Below, piece after piece: positions 1 through 25,804 of a stretch of 38,864 nucleotides of DNA. Under the pieces are notes generated by a model. It made no database searches. It worked only from the letters and a program-made list of their open reading frames with translations, and had not been told where the DNA came from. How positions within the stretch are numbered: the stretch's first letter is position 1; every line of letters starts with the position of its first letter. Source of the DNA: an uncultured Clostridia bacterium (GTDB lineage Bacteria > Bacillota > Clostridia > Oscillospirales > CAG-272); NCBI GenBank assembly GCA_947626065.1, contig CANQQT010000017.1, positions 1 through 38,864 of the forward strand. Direction: 5' to 3'. Made by a program: the position numbers and the translations under genes.

Positions 1-2925
1 CGGTTTTCCCGTGACGTAGGTAAAACCGGGTTCTACACCGGTGATTGCCCCACTTGCAGAAACCGTAGCAAGGGAGGGAATCCTGCTTTCCCATGTGAAG
101 GTTTGGGAGATTGTACTGGGAGAATAATAGACGGGCTTCAGGTAAAGACGCCCCAAATCCTTTGTCTCGCCGGGGGCAAGGTAAACTGTCGGATTTGTGA
201 CGATCTTCTTCGCGGAGGTATCGTACAGATACACTCCGGTCGGAACGGACGTGAACATCTCCACCTTCCGAAGATCCCACCGGGACGCCGTGTTGCCGGT
301 CGTCGGCCCCACGACGGCGGAGGCTCCGGAAGCCTTGCTTTGGCCCTGTGCCTGAAGGTAATACGACTCGTCGTTGTTGTTCTTCAGCTCATAATAGGCC
401 CCGACGTCATCGATTGTCCATCGGGCGCTGAGAAGAACCTCCGAATCGGTCGGATTTACTGCGTAAACGTCTACGTTGTTCCCCGTGCGGTCAAGCGCCA
501 TGTTGGGGTTGTAATAATGGCGAATGACGTATTTCCCGCCCTTGATATATTGAATGCGCCACATCTGACGAATCATGTCGGTTTCCGTGGAGGTATACCG
601 GCTCTCCTGCGTAACCTTCGTCAGGTTGTCATGGCACCCGTTGGTCGTCAGGTAGCAGTAAGAGTTCCCGTTCATGATATAGTAAATACCGTCAAGGATG
701 CGAACGCACAGCTCCTTCGAGACGGTGGCAATCTCTCCTGTAGAGGGAACGGTGCAGGAAGCGGTAATCACCGTCGTCCCCGCGCGAATGCCTCTCACCG
801 TACCCGAAGAATCCACCGCCGCGACTCCCGGGACGGAGGACGTCCATGTGACCGGAATCCCCGACGGAGAAGTGATCGCCGTCCACTGGATAGAGCCGTC
901 GGCATATACGTTTTCATTTCCGGTGATCTGAATCGTCGGAAGCTCATTTTCAATATATGCGCCGTTTTCAACAATGCGCCACCGCTGGTATGCGCTTCCC
1001 GTATAGGTCGATACGAAAACGTTTCCGGGCGAGGTGGTGGAGGTGCCCGAAGAGCTTCCGTTGGCGGAAGACGGATAGGCGGAGAGCGCCGTTGACATTT
1101 TTGTCCGAGGAATCAGCCGGAATTCGCTGTTTCCGCAACCGACGATAAACCAATGCTGAGCAAGGGAATCGTTGTTGGAATAAATCTGAACGTTGCTTCC
1201 GCTCTCGACGTAGCCGTCAATCTTGTAGATATCAAGAACACGGTTGGTTCCGTTTGAGCTGCACATGGCGCGCAGAACGTACCCGCCGGTTGAGGAGACG
1301 TATTCCAGCTTGAATTTCTGGCCGGAGGAGAGGGAAGAAATCGACGTACTGTACTGATAAACGTTGACGTCGTTGGCGTCGGTGCTGTTGTGAACCGTCA
1401 GGAAGGAACCGCTCCCGACGTTCTGGAAGGAATAGATTCCTCCCGAGAAGAGCGTGTCGGGAAGCGAATATCCGTACCGAACCGTGATCACGGGGCGCTT
1501 GGAGGCGGTGGAAATCTCGGTAGCAAGGAAGACGTTGTAGTCCGGATTGACGTTCGACTCATCCTCATACCGGATCATGTACCCGTAATTGGTTCCGCCC
1601 TGTTTCAGCTTCCACTCCATATCCGCCGTGATATCAAAGGTCATGGTGGAAAGGGAGGAATTGTAAGGGACGGTGGAAAGCAAGCTACCCCCGGACGGTG
1701 CGTTTGCAAAGGTGATAGTCGCGGGATCCCAAGACGAGCCGGCGCGATACATCCGGGCCGTCTTTCCTGTGGTCGTTCCGGACATGAACCGGAAGGTAGC
1801 CTCCGCGCTTTCAATCGGCATACTCGGGTCGATCTCGGGAAGATTGTTGATTTTAACATAGGTTCGGAGAACCTTTCCCGATTTCACCCCGAAGTAAAGA
1901 TTTTTCTCTTCCGAATGGTTGGCGGTGTTGCCTTCCTGAACGTAAGTGTCGGTAATGTTGGAACAGTATTCTCTTGTCGTTATCGAAGGATCCAGGAGAA
2001 GAGGATACACCCGATCGGGAGAAGAAAGCCATTCCTCCTCCGGCGTATAGGTAACGATCCAAACGTCGCCTTCCTGCTTTACCGTAACCTCGATATCGTT
2101 GAGAACCTCGTAAGCGGCGTCGGACATATAAGGAACGCCCACACGGTACTGGAGGGTTCCCGTCTCGTCGACGAAGCTCACGCTTCCGTCGCTCTGAGGA
2201 AGAGCGGACAGGCCGGGAGCGTTCACAAGCATCGAAAAGCTTCTTACGTCTGTCGGGGAAAGAATGTATACGTCCTCTTCTACCTTGTTTTGGAAAACGG
2301 AATATTCAACCGCAATCTCAGGGGAGGAGGAGAAGGGGCGGGAATATCTTAAAGCGCCGGAAATACCCGGTACGGCAAGCGCCGATGCGTCGGTTTCTTT
2401 GGCGTTTAAGATTTCGGCGGCCTGAGTGGAGGTTTCCTCCAAAATCTTGCTTATCCCTCCCGCTTTTCCGACTGCAAGAGACCATGAGAAGGAGCGGCCA
2501 TCCTTGAGGAGGGAGACCGTGTTCCGCGTCAGGGCCTTTTCCGCAAAGGACACCTGAAAGTCGGAATTGCTGTTCTTGATTTTCCCGTCCGATAGGCTCA
2601 GAGTATTGTCAACCTCCTGCCACCGGCCGTCTTCGTCAAGATAATGCACGGCTTCCGGATAGGTTACGGCCAAAAAGCTTCCGTCTTTAAGCAAATAATG
2701 CTTTTCAAACTCGCCGCGTCCCGAAATCTCTTCGGCGGCAATTTCGCTGTTGTCGGAAAGATAGGAGGGCACGGGGCCCAGCTCTTCCTCGCCGGAGAGA
2801 AGAGGCGCTCCCGTCTGAGGGTCCGGGCCGTTCGCCGAAACGTAAAACGGGAAGGCCGCGACCGAGAGAAGGACGGCAAGGAACAGACTGAGAAGGGAAA
2901 GTCTTCTTTTCTTTGAAATTTTCAT
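1..2925 (-). CDS. Secreted/surface protein with DNRLRE-like domain, ricin-type lectin (RICIN) segments and BIG2-like Ig domains; C-terminus truncated by window edge
   Basis: Manual translation from ATG at 2925 is open to base 1: MKISKKRRLSLLSLFLAVLLSVAAFPFYVSA signal peptide; TDTYVQEGNTANHSEEKNLYFGV...ARMYRAGSSWDPATITFANAPS (DNRLRE-like); GIYSFQNVGSGSFLTVHNSTDANDVNVYQY...AQHWFIV (RICIN-like); WTAITSPSGIPVTWTSSVPGVAAVDSSGTVRGIRAGTTVITA and TFTWESRIPSLATVSASGAITGVEPGFTYVTGK (BIG2-like). Absent from the ORF track because no stop lies in the window. Confidence 0.88.
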   Translation of the reverse strand, partial: MKISKKRRLSLLSLFLAVLLSVAAFPFYVSANGPDPQTGAPLLSGEEELGPVPSYLSDNSEIAAEEISGRGEFEKHYLLKDGSFLAVTYPEAVHYLDEDGRWQEVDNTLSLSDGKIKNSNSDFQVSFAEKALTRNTVSLLKDGRSFSWSLAVGKAGGISKILEETSTQAAEILNAKETDASALAVPGISGALRYSRPFSSSPEIAVEYSVFQNKVEEDVYILSPTDVRSFSMLVNAPGLSALPQSDGSVSFVDETGTLQYRVGVPYMSDAAYEVLNDIEVTVKQEGDVWIVTYTPEEEWLSSPDRVYPLLLDPSITTREYCSNITDTYVQEGNTANHSEEKNLYFGVKSGKVLRTYVKINNLPEIDPSMPIESAEATFRFMSGTTTGKTARMYRAGSSWDPATITFANAPSGGSLLSTVPYNSSLSTMTFDITADMEWKLKQGGTNYGYMIRYEDESNVNPDYNVFLATEISTASKRPVITVRYGYSLPDTLFSGGIYSFQNVGSGSFLTVHNSTDANDVNVYQYSTSISSLSSGQKFKLEYVSSTGGYVLRAMCSSNGTNRVLDIYKIDGYVESGSNVQIYSNNDSLAQHWFIVGCGNSEFRLIPRTKMSTALSAYPSSANGSSSGTSTTSPGNVFVSTYTGSAYQRWRIVENGAYIENELPTIQITGNENVYADGSIQWTAITSPSGIPVTWTSSVPGVAAVDSSGTVRGIRAGTTVITASCTVPSTGEIATVSKELCVRILDGIYYIMNGNSYCYLTTNGCHDNLTKVTQESRYTSTETDMIRQMWRIQYIKGGKYVIRHYYNPNMALDRTGNNVDVYAVNPTDSEVLLSARWTIDDVGAYYELKNNNDESYYLQAQGQSKASGASAVVGPTTGNTASRWDLRKVEMFTSVPTGVYLYDTSAKKIVTNPTVYLAPGETKDLGRLYLKPVYYSPSTISQTFTWESRIPSLATVSASGAITGVEPGFTYVTGKP

Positions 2926-2959: not shown

Positions 2960-3091
2960 TCAATGGGCCTTGCGCTTTTTTCCTTTTGTGCGTGCCGTCC
3001 GGGGATCCGAATCAGCACGCAAGCGGAACAAATTTAGGAAAAAAGGGCCAAAAAGGAAGGAAAACAGCGGGAAAGACGCCGGCCACCGCAT
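2960..3091 (-). CDS. Small ORF (43 aa) upstream of the DNRLRE gene; hydrophobic N-terminus, basic C-terminus; homologous to the sORF at 3723-3905
   Basis: MRWPASFPLFSFLFGPFFLNLFRLRADSDPRTARTKGKKRKAH*, GGAGG 4 nt upstream of ATG, about 45 nt downstream of the -10 of a predicted promoter; nucleotide and peptide similarity to 3723-3905. Confidence 0.5.
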   Translation of the reverse strand: MRWPASFPLFSFLFGPFFLNLFRLRADSDPRTARTKGKKRKAH

Positions 3092-3136
3092 AACGCCTCC
3101 TTTCTCACGGTGGAAAAAAGTTTTTATCTATAAATT

Positions 3137-3165
3137 ATTGTATCACATGGGAAATCATTTGTCAA
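3137..3165 (-). promoter_or_regulatory. Sigma70-type promoter for the sORF/DNRLRE gene
   Basis: Minus strand TTGACA-17 bp-TACAAT. Confidence 0.65.
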
Positions 3166-3176
3166 TAGTATCAAAC

Positions 3177-3196
3177 GTAAAATTTAAATATTTTAC
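3177..3196. promoter_or_regulatory. AT-rich inverted repeat upstream of the -35, possible operator
   Basis: GTAAAAT-TTAAAT-ATTTTAC, perfect 7-bp arms. Confidence 0.3.
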
Positions 3197-3283
3197 AGAA
3201 AGAGGGAAAAATTGGACGATTTTTTCCGGGGCCGATCCACCGGTCGGGGATTTGTCCCAAAAGCGCTTTTCTCAAAGCAGAAA

Positions 3284-3324
3284 CCGGTCGGGGCCCTTTT
3301 AAGGAGCTCCGACCGGACGTTTTT
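3284..3324. terminator. Hairpin with T-run in the interval after the 126-aa lipoprotein-like gene
   Basis: CCGGTCGGGGC...GCTCCGACCGG (one G-U pair) followed on + by CGTTTTT; in the minus direction it follows the stop at 3346. Confidence 0.5.
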
Positions 3325-3345
3325 ATCGGGTTGTTGCCTACGAGA

Positions 3346-3726
3346 TTACTCAGGCAATTCAAAAGTCATATCTTTCCAAAGATCGCCCCGAAAGCTCCAT
3401 TTGATTGTCACAGAACGACCGTCTTGGATGATTTCGTACTTGCCATCCGCGAACGGACAGTACCCATCGTCACCGCCGGTTAAATCGCCCAAATAGATCG
3501 GTTTGTCATCATCCTTTTGATAATACACATCTTCGCCACTTCCCATCAACCAGCCCCATTCCTTGATGATCAGCTTCTCGGACTCATCCTGTAAAGGGAT
3601 ATAAAGATCCTCCAAATATTCCCGCTCAAAAAAATCTCCTTCGGAATCGCATCCGCGAAAGGCGGGAATGACCAAGAAACAGCACAGCAACAAAGCGATG
3701 ACGGGGTTCACAATGATGTTATTCAT
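3346..3726 (-). CDS. Small exported/lipoprotein-like hypothetical protein (126 aa)
   Basis: MNNIIVNPVIALLLCCFLVIPAFRGCDSEG... hydrophobic N-terminus followed by Cys; start overlaps the upstream sORF stop (ATGA). Confidence 0.65.
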   Translation of the reverse strand: MNNIIVNPVIALLLCCFLVIPAFRGCDSEGDFFEREYLEDLYIPLQDESEKLIIKEWGWLMGSGEDVYYQKDDDKPIYLGDLTGGDDGYCPFADGKYEIIQDGRSVTIKWSFRGDLWKDMTFELPE

Positions 3727-3905
3727 TTTGTATCCTTTCCCAGAGAAAATCTGTAAACGCTTTCTTTCTTCATTGTCGTTTGCTGTTCGATAAGTTTTTC
3801 ACGTTTTTCGTTTGCGCGTACCGTCCGGGAATCCGAATCCGCACGAAAGCAAGACAAATTCAGAAAAAGGGCAAATGAGGAAAAGCCGAGGAAAGACGCG
3901 GCCAC
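3723..3905 (-). CDS. Small ORF (60 aa) translationally coupled to the 126-aa protein; homologue of the sORF at 2960-3091
   Basis: GTG start in the frame of track ORF 3723..4106: MAASFLGFSSFALFLNLSCFRADSDSRTVRANEKREKLIEQQTTMKKESVYRFSLGKDTK*; GGAGG upstream; ATGA overlap with next ORF. The longer 4106 start would read through the predicted promoter. Confidence 0.5.
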   Translation of the reverse strand: MAASFLGFSSFALFLNLSCFRADSDSRTVRANEKREKLIEQQTTMKKESVYRFSLGKDTK

Positions 3906-3942
3906 CGCGTAACCCTCCGTTCTGCTGTTGACGTTTGATTTT

Positions 3943-3971
3943 ATTATAGCGGGTACATTATCGCCATTCAA
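3943..3971 (-). promoter_or_regulatory. Predicted promoter for the sORF/126-aa protein pair
   Basis: Minus strand TTGAAT-17 bp-TATAAT. Confidence 0.55.
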
Positions 3972-4184: not shown

Positions 4185-4224
4185 AAAAAGGAGCGTTTAC
4201 GCGTGGTTTTTGCGCGTAAACGCT
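4185..4224 (-). terminator. Rho-independent terminator of the Sel1-repeat gene 4277-6214 (likely bidirectional)
   Basis: Perfect 12-bp stem AGCGTTTACGCG/CGCGTAAACGCT; followed on minus by CCTTTTTT and on + by TTTTTT. Confidence 0.75.
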
Positions 4225-4278
4225 TTTTTATGCTTTTTTGCGTTTTTTACGCTTTTTTACGCGTGTAAACGCTTTTTT
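4224..4278. repeat. Phased T6 tracts
   Basis: T6 runs start at 4224, 4234, 4243, 4253 and 4273. Confidence 0.6.
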
Positions 4279-25583: not shown

Positions 25584-25623
25584 GGCACCGTTTTTCCTTA
25601 AAAATTCAATATTTCATAAAAAT

Positions 25624-25737
25624 CTTTGGGGCGTGGTGAAATTCCACACCGGCGGTGATAGTCCGCGAACGCTTTTACAAGCGCCGAATGGGTGAAATTC
25701 CCATACCGACGGTTAAAGTCCGGATGGAAAAAGAGAG
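25624..25737 (+). ncRNA. FMN riboswitch (RFN element)
   Basis: CTTTGGGGCGTGGTGAAATTCCACACCGGCGGTGATAGTCCGCGAACGC...GCCGAATGGGTGAAATTCCCATACCGACGGTTAAAGTCCGGATGGAAAAAGAG. Confidence 0.95.
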
Positions 25738-25804
25738 GTTGGCTTCGACGCCCTTTTTGGCGCTCGGAGTCTTTTTCTTTCCCCGGAAAGGAATCTACCT
25801 TATT

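What the first reader, a model, noticed from the sequence alone, without database searches (positions are those of the whole stretch)
2960..3930. Duplicated promoter-proximal small membrane-peptide ORFs, each preceding an exported-protein gene
Seen: two minus-strand intervals (about 2985-3105 and 3795-3925) share a diverged sequence. Each lies just downstream of a good promoter (3137-3165; 3943-3971) and carries a GGAGG Shine-Dalgarno. Each encodes a related peptide: A, MRWPASFPLFSFLFGPFFLNLFRLRADSDPRTARTKGKKRKAH; B, MAASFLGFSSFALFLNLSCFRADSDSRTVRANEKREKLIEQQTTMKK.... In the aligned body the gaps are whole codons and some changes are synonymous (CTA/CTG, GCT/GCG), favouring coding. B ends in an ATGA overlap with a 126-aa lipoprotein-like ORF; A ends 34 nt before the DNRLRE/lectin gene. 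Inference: a small-protein family or regulatory leader-peptide module duplicated upstream of secreted proteins. Neither is described to my knowledge, but I could not search.
Basis: partly seen in the sequence, partly recalled or inferred. Interest (0 to 1): 0.72.

Follow-up and report, generated by a model that had tools for sequence, protein, structure and literature searches.

The report
Repeated leader peptide before exported-protein genes
Several genes for exported proteins in this bacterium are each preceded by a copied control segment (a promoter, a hidden 24-amino-acid leader peptide in a different reading frame from the one first proposed, and an RNA hairpin at its stop codon), which probably works as a small ribosome-operated switch; how it works is untested.

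Summary
The duplicated sequence is real, but the proposed peptides are not its product. The same genome holds five copies: A and B in the window, plus three on contigs C7, C8 and C26. Each copy sits just upstream of a gene for an exported or lipoprotein-like protein. A neighbouring frame does. Its GTG start lies 8-9 nt after the Shine-Dalgarno sequence and gives exactly 24 residues in four copies: MA(G/D/S)VFP(R/A)(L/V)F(C/L)PF(R/H/W)PFFPKFV(T/P)(P/L)AC-stop (shuffle p < 1/4000). The stop codon lies inside the 5' arm of a hairpin, which is the best-conserved part of the unit and marks its 3' end. A congeneric genome has a lone distant relative, MTYRGPTIRIATHLPFYEFFPKFVP-stop, with the same order: strong promoter, Shine-Dalgarno, short ORF, stop at the foot of a very strong hairpin. 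I read this as a leader-peptide attenuator in which the ribosome at or near the stop codon controls the hairpin; that mechanism is inferred. Copy B has lost the peptide frame. No Rfam, Pfam, NCBIfam, plasmid or phage match.

The parts
3137..3165 (-). promoter of copy A (TTGACA-17-TACAAT, TG before the -10)
   Evidence: conserved in copies C7, C8 and C26
3012..3086 (-). leader ORF of copy A: GTG start, 24 codons, TGA stop; MAGVFPAVFLPFWPFFPKFVPLAC
   Evidence: coding signature p<1/4000 over 4 copies; coordinates. Shine-Dalgarno GGAGG within 3083-3103
2989..3021 (-). hairpin of copy A (outer TGCGTGC/GCACGCA, inner TTCGG/CCGGA); the leader ORF's TGA lies in its 5' arm
   Evidence: z = -3.6 for the 59-nt stretch; best-conserved segment
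1..2925 (-). gene under copy A: exported DNRLRE / ricin-type lectin / Big2 protein with a signal peptide; it runs off the window start, probably onto contig C8
3943..3971 (-). promoter of copy B (TTGAAT-17-TATAAT), not alignable with the promoters of the other copies
3723..3905 (-). copy B ORF from the equivalent GTG: 60 codons.
3817..3845 (-). hairpin of copy B (weaker: one G-U pair, two broken pairs)
   Evidence: (z = -1.05)
3346..3726 (-). gene under copy B: 126-aa protein with an N-terminal hydrophobic segment, no Pfam or NCBIfam match
3284..3316 (-). inverted repeat (CCGGTCGGAGCTCC...GGGCCCCGACCGG) between gene B and promoter A, read here as a transcription terminator, homologous to the one preceding copy C8
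   Evidence: sequence and the 347-nt A/C8 alignment; not listed by the terminator scan

Best explanation
The repeated unit is a transcribed leader: a sigma-A-type promoter, a Shine-Dalgarno sequence, a 24-codon GTG-started leader ORF, and an RNA hairpin whose 5' arm contains the ORF's stop codon. Beyond it lies an exported-protein gene with its own Shine-Dalgarno. Shown here by computation: the unit, its five copies, protein-level conservation of the GTG frame in four of them, the conserved hairpin, and a related leader in a sister species. Inferred: the position and dwell time of the ribosome at the end of the leader ORF (the conserved PFxPFFPKFV stretch near the stop) decide whether the hairpin forms, and so whether transcription or message survives into the exported-protein gene. 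A ribosome held at the stop would keep the hairpin open; prompt release would let it form. The signal sensed is unknown. In copy B the peptide frame has been lost.
For: Five copies, all in sense orientation directly upstream of genes whose products start with an export-type hydrophobic segment. GTG frame: exactly 24 codons without indels in A, C7, C8 and C26; variable sites by codon position 6, 5, 15; shuffle p<1/4000, or 0.007-0.02 with the three close copies alone; the other two frames look non-coding. The hairpin is 77-100% identical between copies and is followed by an abrupt loss of similarity in every pair but C8/C26, whose downstream genes are paralogous. It folds with z of -2.6 to -4.2 in A, C7 and C8. 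The leader-peptide profile finds one further convincing match in the genus, in G003, E = 0.008 for one genome. That match has an 11/12 promoter, a GAGGAGG Shine-Dalgarno, a short ORF ending FFPKFVP-stop and, starting in the stop codon, a hairpin of -32 kcal/mol, z = -9.3, ahead of a membrane-anchored protein. Known precedent for ribosome position at a leader stop codon: TnaC, 24 aa, UGA stop (PMC8429421); Cd CliM, which arrests at its stop codon in Clostridia (PMC13183943).
Against: No expression or ribosome data. The type-1 hairpin has no immediate U-tract, so it is not a textbook terminator, and I found no consistent pairing with the downstream ribosome-binding site. The G003 hairpin is followed by a weak U-tract and did not pass the terminator scan. 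The gene right after it in G003 is degenerate or missing; the exported-protein gene lies about 300 nt on. Covariation in the hairpin is weak: one pair changed on both sides. The F/P-rich composition also follows from a 71-77% pyrimidine tract, which copy B keeps without the peptide. The four copies are paralogues in one genome. The background share of export-like genes in the window is 8 of 29, so the association with export is suggestive only (about 0.006 for four independent loci).
Confidence: 0.5

Rival explanations
1. An RNA-only leader: the pyrimidine-rich tract (a Rho-loading site or RNA-binding-protein site) and the hairpin are what matters, and the short ORF is incidental.
For: Copy B keeps the 76% pyrimidine tract and the hairpin (84-85% identity to the other copies) although its peptide frame is shifted. 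The tract is C-rich and G-poor (C 0.29-0.35, G 0.17-0.20), as Rho sites are. The hairpin is better conserved than the ORF.
Against: The strong excess of synonymous and third-position changes in one frame only and the FFPKFV motif preserved near the stop codon of a short ORF in a sister species are not expected if the peptide is irrelevant.
Confidence: 0.25
2. A promoter region copied along with gene duplications and recombination, with no regulatory role beyond being a promoter and 5' UTR.
For: A and C8 share 347 nt including the preceding inverted repeat; C8 and C26 share their downstream gene; B, A and C8 appear to lie in one gene cluster.
Against: Similarity ends at the hairpin's 3' end in every pair except C8/C26, the hairpin is more conserved than the promoter's surroundings, and the GTG frame shows protein-level constraint. 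The downstream genes of A, B, C7 and C8 are not recognisably related.
Confidence: 0.15
3. One reading: a duplicated small membrane-protein family in the ATG/GTG frame (MRWPASFPLF... and MAASFLGF...).
For: The ORFs are open in A and B; A has an ATG 4 nt after GGAGG; the amino acids look similar because the DNA is similar.
Against: No start codon in that frame in C7 or C26 and only a poorly placed GTG in C8; 1-nt deletion in C26; coding test p = 0.95 (5 synonymous against 58 nonsynonymous codon differences); A/B p = 0.56; no Pfam or NCBIfam match.
Confidence: 0.04
4. A small mobile or repeated DNA element (for example MITE-like) that inserts in front of genes.
For: Multi-copy, bounded at its 3' end by a hairpin.
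Against: No terminal inverted repeats apparent by eye, no matches in plasmids or phages, all copies in sense orientation before a gene start, copies diverged to 70-90% rather than recent.
Confidence: 0.06

Closest known systems
TnaC leader peptide of the E. coli tna operon (Rho-dependent attenuation; PMC8429421)
   Same: 24-residue leader ORF ending in UGA, control exerted while the ribosome sits at the stop codon
   Different: No sequence similarity; TnaC senses tryptophan and guards a rut site rather than a hairpin; here the targets are exported proteins and there are several copies in one genome; no stalling shown
CliM and other Sec/YidC-related arrest peptides (PMC13183943, PMC10987492)
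   Same: Leader ORFs with a conserved C-terminal stretch near the stop; Cd CliM arrests at its stop codon in a clostridial species
   Different: Those carry an N-terminal localisation signal, are larger than 30 aa and precede secA, secDF or yidC; this one is 24 aa, has no signal segment, lacks the RAPP-type or KYxIW motifs, and precedes diverse exported proteins
Amino-acid attenuators such as pheL/pheM (from general knowledge)
   Same: Phe-rich short leader ORF followed by RNA structure
   Different: No amino-acid biosynthesis or tRNA-synthetase gene downstream; Pro nearly as frequent as Phe; no terminator with an anti-terminator found

Membership tests
Cis-acting leader peptide (uORF) attenuators | short translated ORF with a ribosome-binding site between promoter and gene | tested here: met
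   (by sequence; translation itself not measured)
Cis-acting leader peptide (uORF) attenuators | conserved peptide sequence or regulatory codons | tested here: met
   distant relative
Cis-acting leader peptide (uORF) attenuators | alternative RNA structures, terminator or masked ribosome-binding site controlling the downstream gene | tested here: inconclusive
   hairpin conserved; no U-tract in type 1; ribosome-binding-site masking not consistent between copies
Ribosome arrest peptides | the nascent chain stalls the ribosome | not testable with these tools
   needs toeprinting
Sec/YidC-monitoring arrest peptides | signal or transmembrane segment plus C-terminal arrest motif, upstream of secA, secDF or yidC | tested here: not met
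   24 aa, no signal segment, other downstream genes (criteria)
Known RNA families (Rfam 15) | covariance-model match above the gathering score | tested here: not met

The most novel reading that the evidence does not exclude
A new class of nascent-chain sensor: a 24-residue PFxPFFPKFV leader peptide that arrests ribosomes at or near its stop codon and, by holding open an overlapping hairpin, co-regulates several unlinked surface-protein and lipoprotein genes of one bacterium as a leader-peptide regulon.
Probability: 0.2. Interest if true: 0.75.

Novelty: new member of a known kind. Interest (0 to 1): 0.5.

Why it matters
If correct, several exported-protein genes of a little-studied bacterium share one ribosome-operated switch, with the same leader peptide copied from gene to gene. 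Leader peptides are mostly known as single copies before one operon. The FFPKFV ending next to a stop codon embedded in a hairpin is a concrete, cheaply testable candidate for programmed pausing at termination. It also shows how easily a conserved leader can be read in the wrong frame when only two copies are seen.

Tried and rejected
Known RNA family: none in the leader region or related loci. Pfam and NCBIfam for both proposed peptides: none. Mobile association: no plasmid or phage match, no match to the core or the FFPKFVP-stop codon pattern in viral contigs. GTDB-wide pattern scan: only two hits, in a Flammeovirgaceae and a Bryobacteraceae contig, judged to be chance from the organism alone and not examined further. 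Family and order searches by blastn and covariance model: outside this genome only short, mostly promoter-like, or marginal matches. FFPKFV(P/T) codon pattern in 396 genomes: besides this genome and G003, the 30 loci inspected were inside other ORFs or lacked a convincing short-ORF context; about 30 more one-mismatch matches were not inspected. Masking of the downstream ribosome-binding site by the pyrimidine tract: strong in A only. The exact motif string is absent from the held papers.

Full report
What is there. The window is contig C17 of a 2.4-Mb draft genome. Blastn and a covariance model find three more copies in the same genome: C7:48.0-48.2 kb, C8:49.6-49.8 kb and C26:15.7-15.85 kb. 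The last 77 bases of contig C8 equal the first 77 of the window, so B, A and the C8 copy most likely sit in one same-strand cluster: B leader, 126-aa protein, inverted repeat, A leader, DNRLRE/lectin protein, a lipoprotein with weak DUF3862/BamE-like matches, inverted repeat, C8 leader, 349-aa lipoprotein.

The unit and its limits. In A, C7, C8 and C26 similarity runs from the promoter through a short leader to the end of a hairpin, then drops to background in every pair except C8/C26, whose downstream genes are paralogues. The hairpin (CGCGTGCTGATTCGGATTCCCGAAGGCACGCG in C7 and C8) is the best-conserved segment, 77-100% identical between copies and about 84% even against B. It folds better than shuffles in A, C7 and C8 (z = -3.6, -4.2, -2.6; B -1.05). 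Covariation is slight.

Which frame is coding. On the 75 gap-free columns of A, C7, C8 and C26, a column-shuffle test gives p<1/4000 for the frame that begins at the conserved GTG (34 synonymous against 26 nonsynonymous codon differences; still below 1/4000 when the hairpin arm is left out). With only the three closer copies, p is 0.007-0.02. The peptides are MAGVFPAVFLPFWPFFPKFVPLAC (A), MADVFPRLFCPFRPFFPKFVTPAC (C7), MAGVFPRLFCPFHPFFPKFVTPAC (C8) and MASVFPRVFCPFRPFFPKFVTPAC (C26). The UGA stop lies in the 5' arm of the hairpin.

Relatives. Blastn finds no copy of the unit in the eight other genomes of the genus. Blastn in 297 genomes of the family gives only short matches, mostly to the promoter, and the covariance model in 396 genomes of the order gives two marginal ones besides this genome. 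A profile of the four peptides finds one further convincing candidate, in G003 of the same genus (E = 0.008 for that genome): MTYRGPTIRIATHLPFYEFFPKFVP-stop. Its setting repeats the plan: TTGACA-17-TATGAT promoter, GAGGAGG Shine-Dalgarno, a 25-codon ORF, and a hairpin of -32 kcal/mol (z = -9.3) that begins in the stop codon, followed by a short U-run too weak for the terminator scan. The next intact gene, about 300 nt on, encodes a membrane-anchored protein without Pfam match. The codon pattern for FFPKFV(P/T) in 396 genomes gives no other instance in a convincing short-ORF setting among the 30 loci inspected. There is no exact match in viral contigs, no match in plasmids or phages, and only two apparently unrelated GTDB hits.

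A second leader type. Orthologues of the window's lectin gene in G007 and G005 have a different leader: promoter, Shine-Dalgarno, a 17-codon ORF (MIAEHIIVSACLYLTAR / MIGEQNIVSVCPCFASR), a strong hairpin, and a stretch after the stop that is complementary to the gene's Shine-Dalgarno. A covariance model finds it once in each of these two genomes and, apart from one marginal match, nowhere else in 39. Only about half of the 17 residues agree, so its ORF may be incidental. It suggests that this gene is under some leader control in the genus, by varying means.

How it probably works. The plan (translated leader, stop codon inside a hairpin, own ribosome-binding site for the gene) fits control by ribosome position at the leader's end: a ribosome waiting at UGA would cover the 5' arm and prevent the hairpin; prompt release would let it form. 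In G003 the hairpin may terminate transcription. In the window's type there is no U-tract, so the consequence could be Rho-dependent termination, message decay or a translational effect; the leader is C/U-rich and G-poor, which suits Rho. TnaC (24 aa, UGA, Rho; PMC8429421) and Cd CliM (arrest at its stop codon; PMC13183943) are precedents for control or arrest at a leader stop codon. None of these steps was tested here. Masking of the gene's ribosome-binding site was seen clearly only for A.

Association with export. All five downstream genes in this genome, and the one in G003, encode proteins with a strongly hydrophobic N-terminus. By the same crude measure 8 of 29 long ORFs in the window score so, which puts four independent loci at about 0.006. 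This is suggestive, and the measure is rough.

Verdict. Best filed as a new, lineage-restricted leader-peptide element, a new member of a known kind, with an untested mechanism.

Noticed in passing
L098 (rc about 1230-1450, G007) and L102 (rc about 1310-1540, G005): A different leader upstream of orthologues of the window's lectin gene: promoter, 17-codon ORF, strong hairpin followed by U-runs, and an anti-Shine-Dalgarno stretch (AATTCTCCGT in G005) complementary to the gene's Shine-Dalgarno (ACGGAGAAATT); also CGTCTCGG inside the ORF complementary to CCGAGACG in the hairpin. No Rfam match.
   Followed up: partly
window 1-77 and the end of contig C8: Contig C8 ends with the same 77 bases with which the window begins, inside the lectin gene, so the two contigs probably adjoin.
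   Followed up: partly
L061 1151-1342 (contig C26): An exact 82-bp direct repeat (spacing 110) just upstream of the C26 leader copy.
   Followed up: no
window 25618-25739, +: FMN riboswitch (105 bits).
   Followed up: no
window 4187-4229, +: A long inverted repeat with U-runs between the 645-aa Sel1-repeat gene and promoter B (20 counted pairs), next to runs of GTAAAAAAGCG-like repeats; a likely terminator.
   Followed up: no
L003 1910-2662, L002 904-1407, L118 3662-4393: Several paralogous lipoproteins, two of which were scanned and have weak DUF3862/BamE-like matches; only the C7 one carries the leader directly, the others start from a short upstream region without it.
   Followed up: no
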